Source: a virus
DNA: 50,593 bases
Direction: 5' to 3' (one strand)
IMG/VR virus record: IMGVR_UViG_3300042691_038861
Location: 1-50,593 of that record
The notes under the pieces were generated by a model. It did not search any database, was not told the origin of the DNA, and was given only the letters and a program-made list of their open reading frames with translations. A program made the translations under genes and the position numbers. Shown here piece after piece: positions 6,847 through 47,517 of this stretch; within the stretch, counting starts at the first letter, position 1; each line of letters begins with the position of its first letter.

Positions 6847-7218
6847 TTAAGAAACTTGTTGGAGTCTTTCTTTAGATGCCTTTGCATCTGACATTATTTT
6901 TTTTATAAGTCCATAAAGTTCGCTACCAGATTTTTGTACAGATTCATCGTCGGGTGACTTAGAAGCTTTTACTGCGGTTAAAAAATCTCTTCCAAGGTTT
7001 ATTATTTTAGGATTTCTTGTTAAATCTGATAACTGTCTAATGTTCACAAAAAATCCTTCTTCTCTATATTTGTCAACATATTTTGATATGAATTTCATAT
7101 CTTCAATTATATCAATGCAGAGTGATTCAATTTCACCTGCATTTAGTAATGAACTTTCATTTATTTTTTGAACTTCTTCTTTAATGATTTGTTTTAGATA
7201 TTCTTTAGTAATTTTCAT
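6847..7218 (-). CDS. Tagged small protein, 123 aa (candidate internal/head protein)
   Basis: The first 21 residues, MKITKEYLKQIIKEEVQKIN and E21, match those of the protein at 36289-36951 at 17 of 21 positions. The bodies of the two proteins are unrelated. I19-N20-E21 followed by S22 fits the I/L-x-E cleavage rule of T4-type prohead proteases. The body (about 100 residues) is helical and charged, with SDLTRNPKIINLGRDF the most distinctive stretch. No family is recognised. It sits 3' of uvsX with GGAG 8 nt before the ATG, and a terminator follows it. Confidence 0.7.
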   Translation of the reverse strand: MKITKEYLKQIIKEEVQKINESSLLNAGEIESLCIDIIEDMKFISKYVDKYREEGFFVNIRQLSDLTRNPKIINLGRDFLTAVKASKSPDDESVQKSGSELYGLIKKIMSDAKASKERLQQVS

Positions 7219-7236: not shown

Positions 7237-7245
7237 ATAAATAGT
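7237..7245 (-). promoter_or_regulatory. Recurrent upstream motif ACTATTTAT, copy 1
   Basis: The minus strand reads ACTATTTAT at the uvsX stop codon, 19 nt before the next gene's ATG. The same 9-mer, or one base different, occurs upstream of four other genes. It could be a phage-specific promoter element. Confidence 0.35.
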
Positions 7246-25468: not shown

Positions 25469-25477
25469 ATAAATAGT
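25469..25477 (-). promoter_or_regulatory. Recurrent upstream motif ACTATTTAT, copy 2
   Basis: Upstream of the sheath gene the minus strand reads ACTATTTATAATAAATT, about 45 nt before the start codon. Here the motif runs into TATAAT. It may be a promoter for late genes. Confidence 0.4.
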
Positions 25478-27310: not shown

Positions 27311-29149
27311 TTAATCTTTTAAAATTCCAGCTATTTTTAGCATTTGTTTTCGTATCGCTTCATTCATTTGCTGTTGAGTTTCCTCTTTTTCTATTTGATT
27401 TCTTTTTTCGAATGCCGCTTTGATGATCCTTTTTATATCATTGTTATTTATTTTTTCAGGATCTAGTTTTTTTATTTTTTCCATTGGAAGTGCAGGATTT
27501 TTTATAACTTCTGCTACAGCATCAATTATATTATTCAACGACCCGATAAAATCACCGGGTGGTCCTTCTTTATCTTTAAATTGATTAAATATTTTCTCTA
27601 GAACATTCGGTGAGGCTTTTTTATTTTGTGCTACTGCTAGAATATCCCATGAGCTATTTCCAGGTTCTGAGTATTTTTCTAAAATTTCTTCTGGAGCTGA
27701 TTGCGATTTAAGTAGCTTAGTACGATTATCGGCGTTTCCCCCATCTTTATCAAATATTTTTTTAAAAGTTTCTGAGGAAATACCTGGTATTTGTGCTACA
27801 CTAATTCTTATAGAACTAAGTTTTGAATCCCCGAATTTTTCTAATTGTTGAACTGGTACATCTCTAAATTTTTCTTGTCTTAGTCCAATAGCTGCAAAAA
27901 AATCAGATGTTTTTTTTATTTTTTTTGAATCTAATATTTTTTTTAAAATTTCGGCTGGGAGGTCTTTTTGGTTTTTTAAAATATATAATGGAGCAATCTG
28001 ATCAGCTGCTTTTTCTGATAATTCAAATAATCCATATAACATTTCTTTTGTTGCCTTACCGGATTTTATGATATAAATACCCTGATTAGGCTGCATTTCA
28101 CCTTTTTTTATTTTTTGATAAAAATCATTTATTACTTCAAAAGGAGAATTTTTGTTACCAACAATAGAAAACGTTATTTCATCATTCTTTTTTTGTAAAA
28201 ATTTCTGGTATGCTTTTAATAGCAACTCAGGGCTTGCTTCACCGCCGGTTATTTTAAGAATAGTTTCTTTATTGCTGCGGGAGGCATCATCCGTATTCAA
28301 CACTATTTTTTCTTTTGCCTCATCAGGGAAATACTTACTTTTAAGTATTTTGCCTCCTTCGGAATCAAAATATTGTACCGGCTTAAATGTTTCAATAATC
28401 CAAGGTACAACCAAAGACTCGTATTTATCAGCGGGCGGTTTATTACCTCTTCCTTTTATTTCGTCTATTTTATTATCTTTTTTAAAAATATTTATAGAAA
28501 CATGCGGTTCATTTTTTGAGTCTCTTAACGAATAAATTGTTTCTTCTGCGGATAGAATTTTTTGGCAATGAACCTTCCCAATGCAATTGCCCATCTTATC
28601 GCCTTCAAGTTTTAAATCAAAATCAACATCTTTTTTATCACCTGAATCATGAGCGATGCGAACCATTTTATAACCGTTGCCAAAGCTATGAACTACATCG
28701 TTTGTTTTATATTCGCCTTTTGTATCACCAGTTGTTTTTGCCAACTCTTCATGCCATTTATCAGATGCTTCCATAGCCTCTTTAAATGTTGCTGGTAATT
28801 CCGAGGAATTAATGCCAACAAAATAATCTTTTACATGACGTATATCTTCATATTTTGGTATTATTTTTTCTACTTTAAGAACATTTGCTAGCCATTTAAT
28901 AAAATACTTTTTGCCATTTTCTGGTAAATATTGTGACGGAATTTTTTCAATAAAATCTAATATGTTCTTTGAAAATCTTTCTTCAACGCCCATTTCAGCT
29001 TTTTTAGTTAATTCTTGATAATAATCTCTTGGAGATTGTTCAGGGGGTTTTGGACTAGCCTTTTTTAAAAAATCCATATTAATAGAAACTAGTTCTTTAG
29101 AATCACCTTGTGCTTCTTTTATGTTTTTTTTAATTTTTACTCTTAACAT
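27311..29149 (-). CDS. PcfJ-like domain fused to helical repeats, 612 aa
   Basis: Residues about 155-260 look like a PcfJ-type domain: LEGDKMGNCIG (with C189), TIYSLRDSKNEPHVSINI and DEIKGRGNKPP match the usual 'EGxxMxxCVG ... SLRD ... P ... IE ... QxxGxxN' pattern. After about residue 290 there are repeated helical pairs with spacing like LRV/HEAT-type units, for example SSIRISVAQIPGISSETFKK and SSWDILAVAQNKKASPNVLE. The N-terminus is basic (MLRVKIKKNIKEA) and the C-terminus ends MLKIAGILKD, similar to the scaffold C-terminus. It lies between the capsid gene and the neck genes. Its function is unknown. Confidence 0.7.
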   Translation of the reverse strand: MLRVKIKKNIKEAQGDSKELVSINMDFLKKASPKPPEQSPRDYYQELTKKAEMGVEERFSKNILDFIEKIPSQYLPENGKKYFIKWLANVLKVEKIIPKYEDIRHVKDYFVGINSSELPATFKEAMEASDKWHEELAKTTGDTKGEYKTNDVVHSFGNGYKMVRIAHDSGDKKDVDFDLKLEGDKMGNCIGKVHCQKILSAEETIYSLRDSKNEPHVSINIFKKDNKIDEIKGRGNKPPADKYESLVVPWIIETFKPVQYFDSEGGKILKSKYFPDEAKEKIVLNTDDASRSNKETILKITGGEASPELLLKAYQKFLQKKNDEITFSIVGNKNSPFEVINDFYQKIKKGEMQPNQGIYIIKSGKATKEMLYGLFELSEKAADQIAPLYILKNQKDLPAEILKKILDSKKIKKTSDFFAAIGLRQEKFRDVPVQQLEKFGDSKLSSIRISVAQIPGISSETFKKIFDKDGGNADNRTKLLKSQSAPEEILEKYSEPGNSSWDILAVAQNKKASPNVLEKIFNQFKDKEGPPGDFIGSLNNIIDAVAEVIKNPALPMEKIKKLDPEKINNNDIKRIIKAAFEKRNQIEKEETQQQMNEAIRKQMLKIAGILKD

Positions 29150-29261: not shown

Positions 29262-31040
29262 TTAGCCTAATAGATCTTGTACAACAACTAAGCCGTACAT
29301 ATCTGGGCGAACCATTGCTTTACCATAACGAGTCATAACAGCCTTACGTGGTACGAAGGTGTCTGGATCGAAGATGGTTGGTGTGCTTTGTAGTGGAACG
29401 TATGGAGCATAGACATAGCCGCTTTCGAGGAAGCTTGCACCCTTACGACCAACTAGAATTACGTTACGGTGGAAGTATGGATGAACGATAACATCCCACT
29501 TCTTGTTTAGATCGCCGGTCTTAACTGCACCGATTGATCCCTTCTCTGCGTCAGCAGTTACTGAAGCGCGGAATCCTGAAGTAAATTCAAGGATATTTGC
29601 AACTTCTGGACCGCAAACGAGGAAGTTTGCACCACCACGTAATGTCTTACGGTGGATGAGAGCTGAAACATCGTTGATTGTTTCAACAAGTGTTTCGTAC
29701 CACATGCTTACGTTACCAGTGAAGTCTGGTGAGTATGTACCAGTGATTTCTACGCCTGAATCACGGTTAACGAATTTACCTGGACGGCGTGACCAGTACT
29801 TAACGCCAGCTGTTTGACCCTTGACAAGATCGTTCATGATTTCTTGATCGATTTCAAGACCGATTTGTTCTGACAACATTGAGGTCAATTCAACTTCTGC
29901 ATCCAAGTTGTGGTATGCATTTAAGTCTTGACCTAATTCTGGTGTCCAAGCAGCCTTGAGCTTGCGTGTACGAGCAGTAATTGAGAAGCTATCAACCTTC
30001 AATTCAATTTCTGGAATTGTTGCTGAACCTTCGAATGTCCAAGGTGTTGCACCGGCTAGAGCACCAAGAGCGTGGGCACCAACGCTTTGGAGATTGTCCT
30101 TGATTGGGACTGTAATACCGTAATTTTGTGCTTCGGTTAGTTTACCGCCAGCATCGGTGATGTCAGAAGTTGCGACTAGAACAAGCTTAAGAGCCTTAAC
30201 GCCTGAAGCTGTGCCGGTTGTACCGTCGATAATTTGTGTTAATCTACGGACGACCTTGAATGAAGTTGTTGAAACGCTTGCTGCTGGTACTTCGCCAGCA
30301 ACTGCGGTGAATGAACCGCTGGCTTCAACAAATGTTGTTGCAAATACGTCTTGTACTGCCAATAGAGCATATTGTGAAATAGCTGTTAGTGGAATTTCAA
30401 CTACCGCTACGTCTGTATATGCTGAATCGTTTAATAAATCGGCATCAAAACGTACTAGTTTCTTGCCAGCATCTGTTAGACCAGCAATCGTGGATGATGT
30501 TACAACGTTAACGTTTGAAGCTGATACTGCGCTTGAGTAACGGGAGGTGGTATAACCGTTAGCTAAATTGTAAAAACCTTTTTCAGCGTAATCAATACCA
30601 TCTACGCGAACACCACCAGTAATTTCGCTGCCTAAACGATCACCAAAGAATGATGATGATACTTCAAAGGCTTTATCTTGTGAATTACCGATTGTTGTAC
30701 CACGACGGAAATCCATGAAGAATACAAGACCTGATGGCAAGCTCATTGGTTGAACTGAAACTAGATCGTTTGCAATCAAACCAGCAAATACGCGGCGAAC
30801 GATTGGGAACGCAACTGCTGCGAAACCTTGTACGTCACCACCAGCCATTGTGGTTGATTCTTTGAGTAATTCTTTAGCTTGGTTCTCTAAGAGAACTGCC
30901 ATTGTGCTCTTTTGACGAACTGACTTTAGACCTTCTAATAGACCTGACTTTTCCCATTTGGAAACAACTGCTTCGGTTTCCTTTAACATGTTGCGTTCAA
31001 CGACGCCTTCTGTTAATCTTTCTAACATTCCGTTTGACAT
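29262..31040 (-). CDS. 23: Major capsid protein, gp23-like
   Basis: A 592-residue HK97-fold capsid protein like T4 gp23 (521). The segment VRRVFAGLIANDLVSVQPMS matches gp23 VRRAIPNLIAFDICGVQPMN, and ESGYVYAPYVPL and LKAAWTPELGQDLNAYHNLD are further gp23-like stretches. The propeptide probably ends at LLKE61/S62, aligned with the T4 site FLTE65/A66; the rule L-x-E matches. The start ATG 31040 has CAGGAG upstream. It follows the scaffold gene, and a strong terminator comes right after it. Confidence 0.96.
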   Translation of the reverse strand: MSNGMLERLTEGVVERNMLKETEAVVSKWEKSGLLEGLKSVRQKSTMAVLLENQAKELLKESTTMAGGDVQGFAAVAFPIVRRVFAGLIANDLVSVQPMSLPSGLVFFMDFRRGTTIGNSQDKAFEVSSSFFGDRLGSEITGGVRVDGIDYAEKGFYNLANGYTTSRYSSAVSASNVNVVTSSTIAGLTDAGKKLVRFDADLLNDSAYTDVAVVEIPLTAISQYALLAVQDVFATTFVEASGSFTAVAGEVPAASVSTTSFKVVRRLTQIIDGTTGTASGVKALKLVLVATSDITDAGGKLTEAQNYGITVPIKDNLQSVGAHALGALAGATPWTFEGSATIPEIELKVDSFSITARTRKLKAAWTPELGQDLNAYHNLDAEVELTSMLSEQIGLEIDQEIMNDLVKGQTAGVKYWSRRPGKFVNRDSGVEITGTYSPDFTGNVSMWYETLVETINDVSALIHRKTLRGGANFLVCGPEVANILEFTSGFRASVTADAEKGSIGAVKTGDLNKKWDVIVHPYFHRNVILVGRKGASFLESGYVYAPYVPLQSTPTIFDPDTFVPRKAVMTRYGKAMVRPDMYGLVVVQDLLG

Positions 31041-31073: not shown

Positions 31074-32489
31074 TTAGGTTATACCTGCTAATTTTTTCAT
31101 TCGTTCTGCGAATGGAATTTCTGCTTCTTCTTTTTTGCGTGTGATGAAAGGCGAGTTACCACGGATCAACGCTTCGCTAAGTGATTCTTTCGGTTTCTTA
31201 GAAGAAATACCCGACACCGTGCTTTGAAGCGTGTTATAGATGGTTTTAGCCTCTAAAACGCTAGTAGATTTGGAAATGTTTTCAACAATTTGGTCTTTTT
31301 GTCGCTCATTCAACGAGACATTTCCTAATACTTTGTTAGTATATAGTAATTTAGCATTTGAAATGCTTAATTTTTCAATATTTTCTTTTAATGAAAGTAA
31401 ATTTTCTTCCATTTCTAGTAATTTTGACTTTAAATCTTCATTTTCTTCTATTAGCGAAGAACCAACTTCTAGGGCTTCATCTAATTTTTCTTGTAAATCA
31501 GACATTGCTTTTTCTTCTTCTTGACGGGCTTCAACAGCCTTTGCGTCTCTCGCAGCTGCGAGTTCAAGAACTCGTTGTTCGCGTTTTTGCGTTACAGTAG
31601 TACCCATATGACCATCACTAAGATTGTCAATATTAATATCTACTTTTAATTCTTCCATTAACTCATTAAGCTCTTCTTCAGAAATTTCAATGTCTTCAGA
31701 CATTGGCGTTCTTTCCGCTTTTACAACTGGTTCTTTTGCAACTCTTTGTTGGGTTATTTTAGCTACGTTTTGTTTAGCCTTAGCTGCCTCTTCTTCTTCC
31801 TTGGCTGCTTTTAATTGAGCTGCTTGCTCTTCTGGTGTCATTTCTCCTTCCAGCTCTAGGTAAACTTGTTCTTCATATTCATCTTGCCCCTCAAAACCAC
31901 GTTCTTTTCTCTTTTCTTCTGCTCTTGAAGGATCGATGAGCATTTCGTCAAATTCATATTCTTCTTCATTTTCTTCTAATTCTTCTTCGGCAAGAGCATC
32001 GGGATCAACATCACGCGCTCCAGCACCATATACTTCGTCTAATTCTTCATTTTCTTCTACAGACTCCATCATTGCTTCTGGTGCTGGTGCTGTTGGTACA
32101 GCAGGAGTTTCCGGTGTTGCTAGCATAGGTGAAGAAACACCAAGTGCTCCTTTTATTTCTTTTTTAAGTTGATCGAAGTTAATTACGATCATTTCTTCAT
32201 CATCTCCCTCTAGAAAAGAAGAAGGAACACCATCAAAAGCTTTTTCTTTATCGTCTTCTGCCTCTAAGCCCATATCCATACCAGATGTTTCTGGTGTTGG
32301 TGTGGCTAAATTTGATGGCATTTGTGCAGCATCATCTTCTAAAGATGCGGCTTCTTGCTCTAACAATTTTTCAACAGATTGCTTGAATTCTTTTGAGTAT
32401 TTTTCAATTAAATTAGCTTCCGCACTTTTTAAGGCGACCTCTCTCAAGGCTGTTGCATCTATAATAGCTTGTTCTAACAAATTTGACAT
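31074..32489 (-). CDS. 22: Prohead core/scaffold protein, gp22-like
   Basis: A 471-residue acidic protein, very rich in E, A and D (long runs such as DPDALAEEELEENEEEYEFD), with a coiled coil at about 290-400. This profile and its position between the protease/tagged genes and the capsid gene fit the T4 gp22-type scaffold, though it is longer (gp22 is 269). Candidate I/L-x-E sites are frequent, as expected for a scaffold degraded by the protease. The C-terminus PFAERMKKLAGIT resembles that of the PcfJ-like protein. A hairpin TCCTG-TGCT-CAGGA covers its ribosome site. Confidence 0.8.
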   Translation of the reverse strand: MSNLLEQAIIDATALREVALKSAEANLIEKYSKEFKQSVEKLLEQEAASLEDDAAQMPSNLATPTPETSGMDMGLEAEDDKEKAFDGVPSSFLEGDDEEMIVINFDQLKKEIKGALGVSSPMLATPETPAVPTAPAPEAMMESVEENEELDEVYGAGARDVDPDALAEEELEENEEEYEFDEMLIDPSRAEEKRKERGFEGQDEYEEQVYLELEGEMTPEEQAAQLKAAKEEEEAAKAKQNVAKITQQRVAKEPVVKAERTPMSEDIEISEEELNELMEELKVDINIDNLSDGHMGTTVTQKREQRVLELAAARDAKAVEARQEEEKAMSDLQEKLDEALEVGSSLIEENEDLKSKLLEMEENLLSLKENIEKLSISNAKLLYTNKVLGNVSLNERQKDQIVENISKSTSVLEAKTIYNTLQSTVSGISSKKPKESLSEALIRGNSPFITRKKEEAEIPFAERMKKLAGIT

Positions 32490-32531: not shown

Positions 32532-32540
32532 ATAAATAGT
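32532..32540 (-). promoter_or_regulatory. Recurrent upstream motif ACTATTTAT, copy 4
   Basis: ACTATTTAT on the minus strand about 42 nt before the scaffold start codon. A 5-bp hairpin that overlaps the ribosome binding site lies between the motif and the start. Confidence 0.35.
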
Positions 32541-32880: not shown

Positions 32881-33333
32881 TTATTCTTTCTTGCCTTTTC
32901 CATTTAAGGCAGTTGATAGACCCTTCCAGATCTGTTTATTTTGTCCTAAAAGCCCTGAAATATCGACACCAGAGCCTTGAATACCTGGTAACACTGTTGC
33001 TTGAGGATTTAGATTTTCTACAATTTGTTCTTCACTGCCTTCAATTGGCATTGAACCTGCAAATGGGTCAAATCCATTCATTGAAATCTTCTGTAATAAT
33101 TGCTTCTTGGCTTCTTGTAGTTTGTTTGGTTTATTTGGAACTGCTTGCTTCATAAACCGAGCTTCTTTTGCTTGATAAGACGACTCTTCTTCGCGGTTTT
33201 CTTTTACTACTTCACGCTGTTTTGTCTTAATTGACTCTTCAATTAATTTATTTAAACCTTGCTCATACAAAATCTCTGTTAAACATTCTTTGATTATAGG
33301 CTTAACAATTTTTTTTAAATCTTGTTTATTCAT
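32881..33333 (-). CDS. Tag-like small protein, 150 aa
   Basis: The N-terminus (DLKKIVKPIIKECLTEILYE) resembles the shared tag of other small proteins here, with the same spacing of L, I and K/E and a candidate cleavage site L22-Y23-E24. The middle is charged and the C-terminal half is Gly/Pro-rich (for example PGIQGSGVDISGLLGQNKQ). No family is recognised. It lies among the head genes, so an internal head or assembly role is plausible. Confidence 0.65.
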   Translation of the reverse strand: MNKQDLKKIVKPIIKECLTEILYEQGLNKLIEESIKTKQREVVKENREEESSYQAKEARFMKQAVPNKPNKLQEAKKQLLQKISMNGFDPFAGSMPIEGSEEQIVENLNPQATVLPGIQGSGVDISGLLGQNKQIWKGLSTALNGKGKKE

Positions 33334-34726: not shown

Positions 34727-35344
34727 TTATTTTCCTATAATATCGTTTAGCAAACGATTCAATCTATCTGCCTTGCTGAATATTTTATTTATATCTCTTG
34801 ATCTACTTTCTGCTAGTTCTTTTGGACCCATGAAAGCGCCCGGTGTCGATGGCTCTTGCACGAAATCGAAACAAATTAATTGAAAGTCTTCTTCAACTAC
34901 TGTTTTGCCACCCTCTTTTCTAGTAGAGCCAAGACCGCGAGAGCTAATACCTAATTTTACACCACCTTTTACTAAATTTTTAAGAATATTACCAGATGGT
35001 GTATCTAATACTTTAACTTTGCCCATAACATTATTGCCTTCCCAAAATATTTTTGTTACCATGTGAGAAGTATTTTTTAAATTGATGACGGAGTCATCTG
35101 GATGGTCTAGCTCGCCTAAAGCCCTGCGCTCTTCTACTAATTTTTGATAATTATCAACTTCCCTCTCAAGAATTCTTCGTGGATAAACACGACCATTGCC
35201 GTTTTCTTGATCTGCTTTTTGCATAATCCCAGATAAGATTAAGCCACCTTCTCTAACAAAGACCTTTTCTTGTTCTGTCAAAAGATCTTGGCAGACTCCA
35301 CCTTCACATAATTCAAAAAATTCTCTTAAAAGTTGTTTACTCAT
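34727..35344 (-). CDS. 21: Prohead protease, gp21-like
   Basis: A 205-residue serine protease of the T4 gp21 (S80) family that cleaves scaffold and capsid proteins during head maturation. RALGELDHPDD contains the likely catalytic H81 and KLGISSRGLGS the likely nucleophile S134 or S135; FDFVQEPSTPGAF is a further family stretch. The N-terminal 25 residues end in LLTE24, a candidate self-cleavage site of the L-x-E type. It is encoded just after a tagged protein and followed by two structural proteins, near the scaffold and capsid genes. Confidence 0.9.
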   Translation of the reverse strand: MSKQLLREFFELCEGGVCQDLLTEQEKVFVREGGLILSGIMQKADQENGNGRVYPRRILEREVDNYQKLVEERRALGELDHPDDSVINLKNTSHMVTKIFWEGNNVMGKVKVLDTPSGNILKNLVKGGVKLGISSRGLGSTRKEGGKTVVEEDFQLICFDFVQEPSTPGAFMGPKELAESRSRDINKIFSKADRLNRLLNDIIGK

Positions 35345-35347
35345 AAT

Positions 35348-35860
35348 TTATTTTTCAATTTGAAACTTGTATGCCATATCTTCTAAAGCCGCAGCAGCCC
35401 CAGCTTCTCCACCAAGACCTTGATTCATTGCCAAATTTGCTGCTCTAAGTTTTTTATCCATATTTGCATCAGACATATAAAGATCTTTAACTTTTATTTT
35501 TTTTCCATAAGAATCTATGGTTTTATTCATTAAAGATCTAACGTTCTCGTCTTCACTTTGTGCTAAAGATTGTATAAAAGATTTAAGCTCTTGTGGGTTT
35601 GAGACACCTTTTTTAACAATAGTAGAAAAAGGAGTTGCTGGAGCCTTTTCAGCTGCCTGTGCTTTGTTAGAAACACCTAAACCGCCAGCAATAGCAGCTG
35701 CCGCTCCTAATCCTGCAACTTTCCTTCCGACACCGCGCGCTAAATCACCCATTAAGCCTTCTTCAAGCTCAGAGGCATCTACTTCTAATTCTTGTTCATC
35801 AAGAACTTTTTCTAATTCTTCTTTTATAAGTTGTTTTAAAGCATCTTTTGTAATTTTCAT
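35348..35860 (-). CDS. Tagged protein, 170 aa, beside the prohead protease
   Basis: The first 18 residues, MKITKDALKQLIKEELEK, follow the shared tag; L20-D21-E22 fits the protease rule. A hydrophobic stretch VAGLGAAAAIAGGLGVSNKA (about 48-67) follows an acidic segment and resembles a membrane-active or signal-like helix. The C-terminal part (about 90-170) is helical. No family is recognised. It is encoded 3 nt upstream of the prohead protease, and a hairpin lies in its leader. It may be an internal head protein. Confidence 0.7.
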   Translation of the reverse strand: MKITKDALKQLIKEELEKVLDEQELEVDASELEEGLMGDLARGVGRKVAGLGAAAAIAGGLGVSNKAQAAEKAPATPFSTIVKKGVSNPQELKSFIQSLAQSEDENVRSLMNKTIDSYGKKIKVKDLYMSDANMDKKLRAANLAMNQGLGGEAGAAAALEDMAYKFQIEK

Positions 35861-35887: not shown

Positions 35888-35913
35888 AGCCCCGTAGATT
35901 TCTCCACGGGGCT
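35888..35913 (-). promoter_or_regulatory. Leader hairpin with the same loop as at uvsX
   Basis: Stem AGCCCCGT with ACGGGGCT (8 bp), loop GGAGAAATCT, followed by TCCTTAATAAA. The loop is identical to that of the uvsX leader hairpin, though the stems differ completely. It overlaps the micro-gene stop and lies 27 nt before the start of the tagged gene at 35860. A weak promoter-like pair (TAGACG, 16 bp, TGTATT) ends one base before the hairpin. Confidence 0.7.
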
Positions 35914-35989
35914 AAATACAGCTACCATTGCAACAACGTCTAACGGGTTGCAACATATAACGACGGATGTATACTTTTTCAGTATTCAC
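35912..35989 (-). CDS. Micro-gene encoding a 25-aa Cys-rich peptide
   Basis: A GTG start at 35989 is preceded by GGAGGTGA, an 8-nt perfect match to the anti-Shine-Dalgarno, 6 nt upstream. The peptide has a basic middle and ends RRCCNGSCI, three cysteines. It fills most of the otherwise empty stretch between two genes. A weak hairpin (TTGCAAC ... GTTGCAA) lies inside. No homologue is recognised. A chance reading frame is possible because of its shortness, but the ribosome site is the best in this region. Confidence 0.5.
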   Translation of the reverse strand: MNTEKVYIRRYMLQPVRRCCNGSCI

Positions 35990-36010: not shown

Positions 36011-36019
36011 ATAAATAGT
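36011..36019 (-). promoter_or_regulatory. Recurrent upstream motif ACTATTTAT, copy 5
   Basis: ACTATTTATACTGAATGG on the minus strand, 7 nt after the stop of the 87-residue membrane protein and just before the ribosome site of the micro-gene. The motif runs into TATACT. Confidence 0.4.
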
Positions 36020-36025
36020 GAAGTT

Positions 36026-36289
36026 TCATTGTTTCTTCACTTTTATTGTTAATCCGTCATCATCTGCTATACGAGATAACAGATACGATGTACCAGATGA
36101 TATACATCCAGCAACAAACCAATTAAAACTTACGTCTATTAAAAGCCAATTAAATACTCCAACCCAAAAACCCATACACATTGGGCATTTAAAGAAATGA
36201 TGTTGCGGTCTAATAGCATCAAAAATTTTGCCATAGACCGCGATCATTGTCATGCCATAACAGGCTAATATAAAAGTTAATAAAATCAT
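36026..36289 (-). CDS. Small membrane protein with a CPMC motif, 87 aa
   Basis: Two to three membrane segments: about 1-20, 37-54 and 56-72. KCPMCMGFWVGVF (34-46) is a motif I associate with small conserved phage or bacterial membrane proteins in which a CxxC pair precedes G-x-W. It overlaps the upstream tagged gene by one base. The job is unknown. Confidence 0.65.
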   Translation of the reverse strand: MILLTFILACYGMTMIAVYGKIFDAIRPQHHFFKCPMCMGFWVGVFNWLLIDVSFNWFVAGCISSGTSYLLSRIADDDGLTIKVKKQ

Positions 36290-36951
36290 TATCTTGAAAA
36301 TTCGTGCGTCCCTTTGCTTGCACGCTGATGACCAGTTAATGTGTCACTGTATGTTCCGGGGGTGTCTCTTTCTCTTCGCTCTTTTTCGCGAGCCAACTCT
36401 AAGCTTTGTTCTGGGGATAATTCTCGACCCTTAGACAAAGATTTAGCAAAGCTAAGTCTGTCTTCTCTCTCTTGATCGGACTTTTCACGCGCTTCTTTTC
36501 CTGATTTTTCTTTCTGAAATTGTCTTTCTTTTTCATCAGCAGCTCTTTTTGTTTTCTCATCTGCATTCTTATACTTAATAGTTTTTTGAGATTCCTCATA
36601 AGTGCTTTGTAAAGCTTCTAGCCAAGCTTTTGTTAATTCTGCTCTTAATTCTTTATCAAAAAGCGCCTTGTCGGCTATTGCGGGAGTGTATTTGTCCCAT
36701 TTGCCAGCTTGAATCGCTCTTTCCCAAGCTTGTTTTTGGCTAGCAGTTAAGCTACCTTTTTTTCCCATTTTTTTAAGACCTTGGAATGCGCTACTGCTTT
36801 CAAGAGCATCCATGACTTTTTCTTTTTTATTTTTTCCAAAAACAGCTTGTCTTGCTTTTGTTAAAAAACCCTCTTCCATTTCTTGCTCTTCGTTAATTTT
36901 TTGTAATTCTTCCTTGATAACTTCTTTTAAATATTCTTTTGTAACCTTCAT
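36289..36951 (-). CDS. Tagged protein, 220 aa, in the head-gene cluster
   Basis: Start ATG 36951 was chosen over the ATG two codons earlier, because AAGGAG is 8 nt before it and the product then begins MKVTKEYLKEVIKEELQKIN and E21, aligned with the other tag. I19-N20-E21 fits the protease rule. The body is charged and helical with an Lys/Glu-rich region (about 140-190). The part after the tag starts EQEMEEGFLTKARQAVFG. No family is recognised. It overlaps the downstream membrane-protein gene by one base. Confidence 0.7.
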   Translation of the reverse strand: MKVTKEYLKEVIKEELQKINEEQEMEEGFLTKARQAVFGKNKKEKVMDALESSSAFQGLKKMGKKGSLTASQKQAWERAIQAGKWDKYTPAIADKALFDKELRAELTKAWLEALQSTYEESQKTIKYKNADEKTKRAADEKERQFQKEKSGKEAREKSDQEREDRLSFAKSLSKGRELSPEQSLELAREKERRERDTPGTYSDTLTGHQRASKGTHEFSR

Positions 36952-36981
36952 TTTCATTCTCCTTATAAATAAAGAAACTTT

Positions 36982-37506: not shown

Positions 37507-38321
37507 TATTGATTTACCTCATGGACAAATTGTTGAATTTTTAATATTTTTTGCAACATGTCCTGTGATAAGTCCTTTACGTCTTTAAAGCTATTCAAAA
37601 ATTGTAAAGTTTTCTTAGTTGAATCAACCATATTTTCATCAGATCTTATCTCTTCTTTATCCAGAGCTTTTATAACATTCTCTTTTAATCTTTCTAATTC
37701 TTCGTTTAGAAAAATTTTGAATTCTAAACCATTATTTTGAAAAGAATTAACATAATTTGTTAAAAATTCTTTTTGTTCCGAAAGAAGACCTTTATATTTT
37801 TCATTAAATTTATTAGTAAAAGTTTTATAAATTAAATTATCCATAGGTTGCAATGAGTTTTTTTGTTTTTCCTCTTTAATAATTTTAATTTTATTTATTA
37901 ATGTTTGCTCTAGTAAGATCTTTTCTTTTGGTGGTGTAGAATTATTAAAAATCTGGTATATTGTTGCTAGATCTTTATAGTTTGGCACAAAAGAATCATA
38001 GATTTTAGCGCCTAATGTTTTATTTATCTTATTAATTAAGTTTGTCTGTTCATTAAAAATAGTTCTTTTATCTATTTTTTCATATCTTGACTCTATTTCT
38101 TTTACAAACTTTTCAGCCAAATGCTCTTCAACTGAATTTTCTTCTAAAGAGCGGTAAAGTGTGAGTTCTTTATATAATTCAGACTTGGGATTAAAATGTT
38201 CAAGAATAATTGTCTTTATAGTTTTTATCTTTTCAACGTCTTTTTCTAAAGCACCACGGGTTGCTTCACGTAGTAAAACTTCGTAAAGAAAAGCGGTATT
38301 TCTTTTCTTATTATGTTTCAT
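37506..38321 (-). CDS. Helical protein following the portal gene, 271 aa
   Basis: Start ATG 38321 was chosen for GGAG 9 nt upstream; an in-frame TTG at 38339 is less likely. The product begins MKHNKKRNTAFLYEVLLREA and is almost wholly helical and charged, with several long coiled-coil-like stretches (for example ERLKENVIKALDKEE). It overlaps the portal gene by 11 nt. The family is not recognised, although a helical protein after the portal gene is common in marine T4-like phages; a core or head-assembly role is inferred. Confidence 0.6.
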   Translation of the reverse strand: MKHNKKRNTAFLYEVLLREATRGALEKDVEKIKTIKTIILEHFNPKSELYKELTLYRSLEENSVEEHLAEKFVKEIESRYEKIDKRTIFNEQTNLINKINKTLGAKIYDSFVPNYKDLATIYQIFNNSTPPKEKILLEQTLINKIKIIKEEKQKNSLQPMDNLIYKTFTNKFNEKYKGLLSEQKEFLTNYVNSFQNNGLEFKIFLNEELERLKENVIKALDKEEIRSDENMVDSTKKTLQFLNSFKDVKDLSQDMLQKILKIQQFVHEVNQ

Positions 38322-40305
38322 TTTTGTTTTCTCCATCAACTTTTTTATTTAGTAAAAACTTATCAAAATTGTTTATTTTTTCTTGAACTTCTAGAAGTAA
38401 TAATTCATCTTTTTCAAAATGATCTACTGTTTCTGTAGTCATAATACCTCTAGAAATGCTTCCCATACCTTTCATACCTTGGATAACACCAGTTATTCCA
38501 GGTGATCCAACTTGCCCACCAGATTGAGCCGACATAGACCTCTTTCTAGCGCCAGAGGAATTTTGTGAAGAAGCAACCTCTTTATATACTGCTCCATTCC
38601 ATCCGGGTTTTGTATAGTATCCGTCTTCACGGCGGGCGGGGGCTGCTAGTAATGGCGACTCTTTTCCTGTTTCACCAGTTGCTGGTGGTGCTTCTCCAGC
38701 AGCAGGAGCGGCTGGAGCTGGAGTTTCACCAGTTGCTGCTGGAGCTGTTTCTCCACCGGCTGGAGATTCGCCAATACCGCCCAAACCACCTCCACCGCCT
38801 GCCGCGCCGCCTTCAGGAACCTCGCCGCCTGCGGCTTCTAATGATTTAGTGAACGCAGCATCATAGAATAATTCTCTTTGAACTCTAACAAATTCTTGTT
38901 CTTCAACTTTTAAAATATTTTGAAATATATAGCGCTTGCTGAATCCTTGCTCTTTTGCATTTCCAGCAATTGCTAGTTGTTTATCTAAATGCTCTAATTC
39001 TTGTAATTCTGCTAATTTTGATGGATTGTGTAGGCGAAGACTAAAATTGATCAAATCGTCGTTGCGGAAACCAAGGGTATAGAGATGGATCATGCCAATT
39101 TTTTCTAATTCATTAATAACGATCTCTTGTAATCTTTGAATTGTTCTAGCAAAACGAATATCTTTTTGCGCTAACATTGTTTTGTCTTCTGCTGCACCTT
39201 CTCCGCGAGCCAAATATGCTTGTGGGATCTTTAAAGCAGAGAATAACTTATCTCTTAGATACTTAACGTCATCAATATCGCCTACGAAATTACCGCCAGC
39301 TAATGTATCAATTGTTGTACCACTTGCTGTTCCACGAACTGGTATAAAATAGTCTTCATCGATACTCATAGGATTGTAACGAAGATCGACACGACCAGTA
39401 GTTGGATCAACTATTTGGTTACGCTTCATTTGAGTAATAACTTTTTGCATATATTGCTCAACATCTTGAGGTGGAACATTTCCAACATCAATTTTGAATA
39501 CACGGCGGTCTGGGGCGCGAACAATACGATAAGCCATCATAGCATCTTCTAGTAATTGAAGCTGACGCCAAATACGACGCGCTGGTTCTAGGATAGAAGT
39601 ACCATATGGGCTATATTTATCTTGTCCTAAAATACGAAAATGAGCTATTTGCCAATTTTCAAAGGTCATCTGAGCACTGTTCCATTGGAACTGCACATAG
39701 TTTGGATTAGTTTCGTCTTCGCCTTCTAGTCTTTCTACTTCTGGTGACGGTAATCCCAGAACGCTTTTAATTCCAGTCTTTTCGTCAATATCTAAATATA
39801 AGAAAAAATCACCAAATTTAACCATTGTACGGCACCAACCATACAAATTTTGTTTAATATTTAATGTTTTATAATATAAATTATTTAATACTTGCTTAAT
39901 TTCTTCATTTTTGCAGCTAATTGACAGCAAAGGTCTAAATTGATTAAATGTTGTCATTTCATCTGCATAAATATCCATAGCAGATGCAATCTCTGGCATG
40001 AATTCCATTTGATCGAAGTCGCTGTAACGTTCGGCGCGACTTTGGTTAGCCATGATATTGCTTTGAATTGCTTCAAACGGATTATAGCTTTTCTTTTTAA
40101 AACTTTGTCCACTTGTTGAAGTAAATTTAAAGCGATCTAAATCTCTGCGCTTGAAACGAATTTGCGATTGCTGGCGATAGTTTACTAATGGACCAGAAAA
40201 CAATCTTGTTAAGGCATTATAAAGAGGTGACTCTTGATTTTTTGGATTGTTTTTAGATAAATCTTTTTTACCATAAATATTTGTATTTTTTGTTCCTGTA
40301 GCCAT
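38311..40305 (-). CDS. 20: Portal protein, gp20-like
   Basis: A 664-residue portal with T4 gp20-like stretches: NPFEAIQSNIMANQSRAERY, PEIASAMDIYADEMTTFN, ILEPARRIWRQLQLLEDAMM and DIRFARTIQRLQEIVINEL. T4 gp20 is 524 residues. The extra length is an Ala/Gly/Pro/Glu-rich insertion at about 491-549 followed by a C-terminal segment (550-664). The portal forms the head vertex through which DNA is packaged. It lies directly after the terminase gene. Confidence 0.94.
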   Translation of the reverse strand: MATGTKNTNIYGKKDLSKNNPKNQESPLYNALTRLFSGPLVNYRQQSQIRFKRRDLDRFKFTSTSGQSFKKKSYNPFEAIQSNIMANQSRAERYSDFDQMEFMPEIASAMDIYADEMTTFNQFRPLLSISCKNEEIKQVLNNLYYKTLNIKQNLYGWCRTMVKFGDFFLYLDIDEKTGIKSVLGLPSPEVERLEGEDETNPNYVQFQWNSAQMTFENWQIAHFRILGQDKYSPYGTSILEPARRIWRQLQLLEDAMMAYRIVRAPDRRVFKIDVGNVPPQDVEQYMQKVITQMKRNQIVDPTTGRVDLRYNPMSIDEDYFIPVRGTASGTTIDTLAGGNFVGDIDDVKYLRDKLFSALKIPQAYLARGEGAAEDKTMLAQKDIRFARTIQRLQEIVINELEKIGMIHLYTLGFRNDDLINFSLRLHNPSKLAELQELEHLDKQLAIAGNAKEQGFSKRYIFQNILKVEEQEFVRVQRELFYDAAFTKSLEAAGGEVPEGGAAGGGGGLGGIGESPAGGETAPAATGETPAPAAPAAGEAPPATGETGKESPLLAAPARREDGYYTKPGWNGAVYKEVASSQNSSGARKRSMSAQSGGQVGSPGITGVIQGMKGMGSISRGIMTTETVDHFEKDELLLLEVQEKINNFDKFLLNKKVDGENKNET

Positions 40306-47041: not shown

Positions 47042-47070
47042 AGTATACATCAGCTGTATATTCTTGTCTA
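47042..47070 (-). promoter_or_regulatory. Sigma70-like promoter for the Mre11-Rad50 fusion
   Basis: TAGACA (47065-47070, beginning with the TAG stop of the upstream gene), a 17-bp spacer, and TATACT (47042-47047, 5/6 match), one base before the terminator hairpin. Predicted start near 47035 would remove about half of the 5' arm from the new message. Confidence 0.65.
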
Positions 47071-47517
47071 GGGCTGTATTAAATTCTTAGTGTGCTTTCT
47101 TGTATCTTCCTGACCAGAGCTTGCGGCGGCATTCATTGGCTTTCTTAAAAATTCTGGATCTTGGTCAACATCTGGGTCGTGATCTATTCTTGGAAAGTGG
47201 GCAAATGCGTTTATATTTCTTTTCTTACCACCAGTTATTTTTATAATTTCATTGTGTATTTCATTACAACGAATATAAAAATTTTGGTCTATCTCTTCCG
47301 AATCTAACAGGTCAATAGCCTTATTTGGCGTAACACCAATCATTTCAAGAGATTGAATTAAATCCTGTATAAAATCTTGTTTATTAGCAGGATCATCCAT
47401 ACCATCTCTTGCTTTTACGAATAAGTGAATAACTTGTTGCTTAATTGGATCACCATAAAGAACTTTTCTTACTTCTTCTTTTATTAATTGTTTTATAAAA
47501 CTTGTTTTAATTTTCAT
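47068..47517 (-). CDS. Tag-like small protein after primase, 149 aa
   Basis: The N-terminus MKIKTSFIKQLIKEEVRKVL matches the shared tag in the positions of K, L/I and E, but the residues after it (YGDPIKQQ) do not form an I/L-x-E site. The body is helical and acidic with an Asp-rich stretch (HFPRIDHDPDVDQDPEFL) and no family is recognised. It overlaps the primase gene by 4 nt (ATGA). It is read just before a terminator. Confidence 0.6.
   Translation of the reverse strand: MKIKTSFIKQLIKEEVRKVLYGDPIKQQVIHLFVKARDGMDDPANKQDFIQDLIQSLEMIGVTPNKAIDLLDSEEIDQNFYIRCNEIHNEIIKITGGKKRNINAFAHFPRIDHDPDVDQDPEFLRKPMNAAASSGQEDTRKHTKNLIQP

What the first reader, a model, noticed from the sequence alone, without database searches (positions are those of the whole stretch)
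6847..7218. Shared N-terminal tag ending in a T4-type protease site: candidate capsid-targeting sequence
Proteins at 6847, 35348 and 36289 begin with the pattern MK-I/V-TK-xx-LK-x-x-IKEE, and 32881 and 47068 with looser versions. Between 6847 and 36289 the tag is 17/21 identical although codons differ at many positions and the remaining protein bodies are unrelated, so the peptide is under selection. Residues 19-21 (I-N-E in two; L-D-E or L-Y-E slightly shifted in two) fit the I/L-x-E rule of gp21-type proteases, the same rule as the likely capsid cleavage LLKE61/S62. T4 internal proteins carry an N-terminal capsid-targeting sequence removed by the protease; this looks like an analogous but different tag. 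The 47068 copy lacks the site. No published description is known to me for this phage.
Basis: partly seen in the sequence, partly recalled or inferred. Interest (0 to 1): 0.85.

Follow-up and report, generated by a model that had tools for sequence, protein, structure and literature searches.

The report
Widespread phage head-import tag candidate
Many unrelated small proteins of a large group of uncultured T4-type phages begin with the same roughly 21-residue peptide, which usually ends at a cutting site of the phage's own head protease, so it is probably an address label that loads proteins into the virus head, where they could later be injected into the host.

Summary
In the window the tag MK[I/V]TKxxLKxxIKEE opens 6847, 35348, 36289 (start at 36951) and 47068. 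32881 is not a copy; it is a conserved single-copy head-cluster gene with a related N-terminus. In 23 genomes (2.6 Mb) I found 197 tags, 3 to 36 per record, on unrelated bodies. The conserved stretch is a glycine- and proline-poor amphipathic helix that ends near residue 22, just where an (I/L/M/V/F)-x-E motif sits: 146/183 proteins against 31-40/183 further on, with A/G/S preferred after the E. The capsid proteins of the same genomes carry the same rule (LL[K/R]E, then mostly A/S/T/Q). Tag-bearing records carry a gp21-type protease in 38/50 cases against 4/50 random records; the large exceptions are cut-off contigs. Tagged genes cluster beside head genes, and some arrays follow a late-promoter-like element. 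No Pfam family and no paper found describes the tag, and no isolate checked carries a clear copy. Best reading: a capsid-targeting sequence that works like T4's but has a different sequence. Packaging and cleavage are inferred, not shown. About 20% lack the site, and the bodies are acidic, unlike T4 internal proteins.

The parts
6847..7218 (-). Tagged protein, 123 aa, unknown body; tag codons 7156-7218 (MKITKEYLKQIIKEEVQKINE, predicted cut after E21, before S22)
   Evidence: Translation; tag score 50 bits; no Pfam/PHROG match; no relatives of the body in viral contigs
35348..35860 (-). Tagged protein, 170 aa, directly upstream of the protease gene; tag codons 35795-35860 (MKITKDALKQLIKEELEKVLDE, predicted cut after E22)
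   Evidence: Translation; tag score 42.8 bits; between portal and protease, the position of T4 genes 67/68
36289..36951 (-). Tagged protein, 220 aa from the inner ATG (ORF opens at 36957); tag codons 36889-36951 (MKVTKEYLKEVIKEELQKINE, predicted cut after E21)
   Evidence: Translation; tag score 40.4 bits from the inner ATG; between portal and protease
47068..47517 (-). Tagged protein, 149 aa; tag MKIKTSFIKQLIKEEVRKVLYG without an (I/L)-x-E site at the tag end
   Evidence: Translation; tag score 28.1 bits
32881..33333 (-). Conserved head-cluster protein between protease and scaffold-position gene; N-terminus (33262-33333) related to the tag and ending in L-Y-E
   Evidence: One orthologue in every genome whose contig covers this region, 18 with the window, E 1e-55 to 4e-25; N-terminal alignment, E24 and G26 invariant
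34727..35344 (-). Prohead protease, gp21 type (Peptidase_S77)
   Evidence: PF03420 E=4e-35; phrog_207 head maturation protease E=5e-57
29262..31040 (-). Major capsid protein gp23; predicted cleavage LLKE61/S62
   Evidence: PF07068 E=9.5e-71; the same site is conserved in the tag-bearing genomes
31074..32489 (-). Scaffold-position (gp22-like) protein, C-terminus ERMKKLAGIT
   Evidence: Synteny next to the capsid gene; counterparts in the other genomes
38311..40305 (-). Portal (gp20 position)
   Evidence: Synteny and tblastn counterparts in the tag-bearing genomes
7237..7245 (-). ACTATTTAT element just upstream of tagged gene 6847
   Evidence: All 4 copies of ACTATTTAT in the window are intergenic and on the coding strand, although 2.3% of the region is intergenic
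32532..32540 (-). ACTATTTAT element upstream of the scaffold-position gene
25469..25477 (-). ACTATTTAT element upstream of the tail sheath gene
36011..36019 (-). ACTATTTAT element upstream of tagged gene 35348 (a 25-codon ORF and a hairpin lie in between)

Best explanation
The shared N-terminal peptide is a capsid-targeting propeptide of a large group of uncultivated T4-superfamily phages. Its amphipathic helix probably docks late-expressed proteins onto the prohead core or scaffold; the shell then closes around them. The gp21-type protease cuts after an (I/L)-x-E at the end of the tag, most often after residue 21 or 22, and leaves the body free in the head for injection with the DNA. Shown here: the tag, its unrelated bodies, its end at the protease consensus, linkage to the protease and head genes, and the shared upstream element at some arrays. 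Inferred: docking partner, packaging, cleavage, injection and the function of the bodies.
For: (1) 197 tags in 23 genomes, none in shuffles; only 6 of 1191 within-genome body pairs are similar. (2) Conservation falls to background after residue 22. [ILMVF]-x-E occurs in 146/183 at residues 16-28 against 31-40/183 in later windows; with A/G/S next, 61 against 4-10; P1' A/G/S enrichment p=1.3e-5 against the same motif in bodies. (3) The MCPs of the same genomes carry LL[KR]E followed mostly by A/S/T/Q. (4) S77 protease in 38/50 tag records against 4/50 random ones, p=2e-12; length-matched 28-100 kb 17/27 against 0/35. Records cut before the protease explain large gaps, and no HK97-type capsid was found in the S77-less ones. 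(5) Tags lie in arrays next to head genes; two window tags sit at the T4 gene 67/68 position. (6) [AT]ACTATTTA precedes 15/89 array heads against 1.6% of random positions, and CTATTTA is upstream of 27/50 structural against 0/49 replication genes. (7) The helical moment is raised in the tag only; Gly/Pro/Asp rise right after residue 22. (8) A conserved head-cluster gene has a related N-terminus with an invariant E after I/L-x. (9) T4 CTSs are 10-19 residues, on divergent bodies, cut by gp21 (PMC9026906).
Against: No virion proteomics or cleavage data exist for any member that I know of, and no cultured phage with a clear tag was found. About 20% of tagged proteins lack the motif at residues 16-28. 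I12-K13-E14 also fits the rule, so the cut point is uncertain. Mean body charge is negative (about -4 per 100 aa), whereas T4 internal proteins are basic. Against other genes the upstream element is only modestly enriched (OR 1.9, p=0.04; OR 3.3, p=0.003 where upstream space is free), and it is absent before the MCP. Among records of at least 100 kb alone the protease association is weak (21/23 against 4/7, p=0.07).
Confidence: 0.75

Rival explanations
1. The tag is a head-targeting or scaffold-binding helix that is not cut: the (I/L)-x-E at its end is just the last turn of the amphipathic helix.
For: Hydrophobic spacing L8, I12, L16, L19/20 fits a continuing helix; about 20% of tags lack the motif; 47068 lacks it.
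Against: E two residues after the hydrophobic, and A/G/S after the E, exceed what the same motif shows in the bodies (p=1.3e-5); the site shifts position while keeping LxE-A (for example G001); MCP site matches.
Confidence: 0.12
2. The tag recruits proteins to another phage or host structure (replication complex, host RNA polymerase, membrane, tail), and co-occurrence with gp21-type proteases only reflects that one phage clade uses it.
For: All tag carriers with mapped cores belong to one collinear phage group, so genome-level association is not independent evidence; some arrays lie far from head genes; one tagged protein is a sigma factor.
Against: The tag end matches the protease rule; shared upstream element with scaffold and sheath genes; two window copies at the 67/68 position and a related N-terminus on a conserved head-cluster gene.
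Confidence: 0.1
3. Conservation is at DNA level (recombination site or translation leader) or a by-product of recent gene duplication.
For: Arrays of adjacent copies and variable bodies resemble recombination-driven exchange.
Against: Synonymous codon changes at identical residues; almost no similar bodies within a genome; sharp motif at the peptide end; internal in-frame second tags in 7 proteins.
Confidence: 0.03

Closest known systems
Capsid targeting sequence (CTS) of phage T4 internal proteins IPI, IPII, IPIII and Alt
   Same: Short N-terminal propeptide, shared by divergent bodies, ending in a gp21-type (I/L)-x-E site, in a phage with a homologous protease
   Different: Different and longer sequence (about 21 against 10-19 residues); T4 has no match to the tag profile; far more carriers (up to 36 per record); bodies acidic on average
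Propeptides of ejection proteins in giant phages such as SPN3US and phiKZ, cut by their prohead protease
   Same: Many head proteins processed by a prohead protease (SPN3US: PMC7411985, PMC10052503)
   Different: Sequence relation not examined here; from memory, phiKZ-type sites follow another rule (S/A/G-x-E)
Far-T4 phages (Roux et al. 2015, PMC4360716) and relatives RM378, immuto, Mel-JY01
   Same: T4-like MCP and head gene order; the window MCP is closest to immuto, Mel-JY01, RM378 and two uncultured huge phages
   Different: Only weak or no tag matches in immuto, RM378 and Mel-JY01; membership in a Far-T4 clade was not tested by a tree

Membership tests
T4 capsid targeting sequence (CTS) | Short N-terminal peptide shared by proteins with unrelated mature parts | tested here: met
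   197 anchored tags; 6 of 1191 within-genome body pairs similar
T4 capsid targeting sequence (CTS) | Peptide ends in a gp21-type cleavage consensus | tested here: met
   146/183 against 31-40/183 in control windows; about 20% lack it
T4 capsid targeting sequence (CTS) | Phage encodes a gp21 (Peptidase_S77) protease | tested here: met
   Window E=4e-35; 38/50 tag records, missing large cases truncated
T4 capsid targeting sequence (CTS) | Sequence homology to the T4 CTS | tested here: not met
   Tag profile finds nothing in the T4 genome
T4 capsid targeting sequence (CTS) | Mature parts are basic, as in T4 internal proteins | tested here: not met
   Mean net charge about -4 per 100 residues
T4 capsid targeting sequence (CTS) | Tagged proteins are inside the head, cut, and the tag alone directs import | not testable with these tools
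   Needs virion proteomics and fusion experiments
T4-superfamily (Far-T4-like) phage | gp23-type MCP, S77 protease and T4-like head gene order | tested here: met
   T4 order
T4-superfamily (Far-T4-like) phage | Placement in a Far-T4 clade by MCP phylogeny | not tested
   Only tblastn similarity was used

The most novel reading that the evidence does not exclude
A protein-import address system new to science, derived from the N-terminus of a conserved prohead-core protein (the 32881 family), loads up to about 35 different proteins per virion, including a sigma factor, into the heads of an abundant uncultured phage group; the tag then identifies hundreds of injected effectors from sequence alone.
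Probability: 0.4. Interest if true: 0.9.

Novelty: new variant of a known kind. Interest (0 to 1): 0.8.

Why it matters
Proteins injected with phage DNA disarm host defences and redirect host transcription, but they evolve too fast to be recognised. A readable address tag would turn a large set of anonymous small genes in uncultured aquatic phages into predicted injected effectors, and would offer a second, independent targeting signal besides the T4 CTS for loading chosen proteins into phage heads.

Tried and rejected
tblastn of the tag alone and of 13 joined tagged proteins against phage isolates: no match (the tag is short and low-complexity). Relatives of the window bodies 6847, 35348, 36289 in viral contigs: none. 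Pfam, PHROGs and PADLOC scans of about 300 tagged proteins: a handful of single matches. T4 late promoter TATAAATA as a marker: not enriched. Idea that tags occur in phages without a gp21-type protease: rejected, the large S77-less records are contigs cut before the protease and a longer assembly of one has it. HK97-type capsids in S77-less records: none. Profile-profile comparison of tag and 32881 N-terminus: only suggestive (E=1.7e-4 for a single comparison, probability 49%). Literature for the tag letters: nothing relevant.

Full report
What was checked. The window is a complete IMG/VR record of 50,593 bases, a fragment of a T4-superfamily myovirus. The 6847 and 36289 tags share 17 of 21 residues, with 7 of the 17 shared residues written by different codons, and bodies that align no better than shuffles. 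The better start of 36289 is the second ATG, at 36951. 32881 does not score as a copy and is discussed below.

How common it is. I read 22 tag-bearing records plus the window (2.6 Mb). Scored from residue 2 to 15 at every possible start codon, 197 proteins exceed 16 bits and no shuffled control does. Records carry 3 to 36 tags; the 284-kb record G043 has 36. Bodies are short (median 115 aa) and unrelated: 6 of 1191 within-genome pairs match, and 9 of 11,175 pairs in the first set.

Shape of the tag. The consensus is MKITKxQLKQIIKEEL. Information falls to background after residue 22. Residues 1-22 hold almost no proline, glycine or aspartate and have a raised helical moment; the next residues are rich in all three. 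This fits a short amphipathic helix followed by a linker.

The end of the tag. In 183 tagged proteins of at least 75 aa, 146 have [ILMVF]-x-E starting at residues 16-26, against 31, 40, 40 and 35 in four later windows of the same size; with A, G or S after the E the numbers are 61 against 4-10. The residue after the E is A/G/S in 37% of such sites at the tag end and in 15% in the bodies (p=1.3e-5). The capsid proteins of the same genomes carry LL[KR]E followed mostly by A, S, T or Q in front of the conserved mature start (one has VLKE). T4 gp23 in the same library reads FLTE-AE. Two reservations: about 20% of tags lack the motif, and I12-K13-E14 inside the tag also fits it.

Protease and gene order. 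Peptidase_S77 is present in 38 of 50 tag records and 4 of 50 random viral records (p=2e-12); at 28-100 kb it is 17/27 against 0/35; above 100 kb it is 21/23 against 4/7. No random record carries a tag. The two large records without the protease are cut: G047 ends just before it and G046 lacks the head region. G026 and G048 also end just beyond the terminase, and a longer assembly that holds the same tagged sigma gene as G047 has the protease. No S77-less record has an HK97-type capsid gene. The genomes are collinear with the window: SbcC, tag arrays, terminase, portal, tags, protease, scaffold, capsid, tail, ssb, uvsX, DnaB. Tags 36289 and 35348 lie between portal and protease, where T4 has genes 67 and 68. 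Because all these phages are one group, genome-level association alone cannot prove a functional link.

Expression. [AT]ACTATTTA is strongly strand-specific in these genomes (for example 18 to 0). CTATTTA lies upstream of 27 of 50 capsid, scaffold and sheath starts and of none of 49 replication gene starts. The element precedes 15 of 89 tag-array heads within 200 nt against 1.6% of random positions. Compared with other genes the excess is smaller: OR 3.3, p=0.003 for genes with free upstream space. In the window the element stands in front of 6847, the scaffold gene and the sheath gene; the copy before 35348 is separated from it by a 25-codon ORF and a hairpin. I read it as a late promoter element; this is inference.

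The 32881 family. Every genome whose contig covers the region has one orthologue between protease and scaffold gene (18 with the window). Its N-terminus, MKKSELKKxLKPLVKECIKEVLFEEG, resembles the tag and ends in an invariant E two residues after I or L. In G001 and G006 it shortens to MKKSELKNIIKECVKEVIFEEG, and in G043 it begins MAKITKRMLKGIVKECLVEILSEG, a bridging form. The profile comparison is only suggestive. The tag may have been borrowed from this core protein; this is inference.

Cargo. Nearly all bodies are unknown. One tagged protein (G047:80401-81549) has a sigma-70 region 2 (41.8 bits, cut-off 24), and its 83%-identical relative keeps the tag and I-D-E site. Seven tagged proteins contain a second internal tag.

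Comparison with the known. T4 propeptides of 10-19 residues direct internal proteins to the core, with targeting determined by residues 4 and 7 and processing by residues 8 and 10, and are removed by gp21 (PMC9026906). The present tag looks like that in every respect that sequence can test except two: it has another sequence, with no match in T4, and it sits mostly on acidic bodies. It is therefore filed as a new variant of a known kind, not as a member of the T4 CTS family. I found no description of it in the held papers, which cover only open-licence literature.

Verdict. Most likely a capsid-targeting propeptide system of uncultivated T4-type phages (0.75). Packaging, cutting and injection remain to be shown.

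Noticed in passing
window 31074-32489 and 27311-29149; G043, G021, G007, G022, G023: C-terminal motif [RQ][WM]xx[LI]AG[IL] on the scaffold-position protein and on several other proteins (22 ORFs against 0 for permuted motifs); possibly a second, C-terminal sorting signal. The 27311 copy (RKQMLKIAGILKD) and some others are looser.
   Followed up: partly
window 7237-7245, 25469-25477, 32532-32540, 36011-36019: Putative late promoter element ACTATTTAT of this phage group, strand-specific and absent before replication genes, which instead often have TTGACA.
   Followed up: partly
L373:401-1549 (G047:80401-81549): Tagged protein with sigma-70 region 2; a possible packaged and injected sigma factor.
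   Followed up: partly
G043, G001, G006, G011, G049: Seven tagged proteins carry a second, internal tag in frame, like fused or polyprotein cargo.
   Followed up: partly
L282 (NHDW01000006.1), L283/L285 (PBIO01000025.1): Contigs of bacterial MAGs with about 20 tags each; probably phage contigs binned into MAGs.
   Followed up: no
L296:4782-5024 (T4 gene 67): T4 gp67 contains TIDLIKEEKIAIARNFLIE-G, which resembles the IIKEE core and end site of the tag; may be coincidence.
   Followed up: no
window 35912-35989: A 25-codon ORF (GTG start, strong ribosome site) followed by a terminator-like hairpin, between the ACTATTTAT element at 36011-36019 and tagged gene 35348.
   Followed up: no
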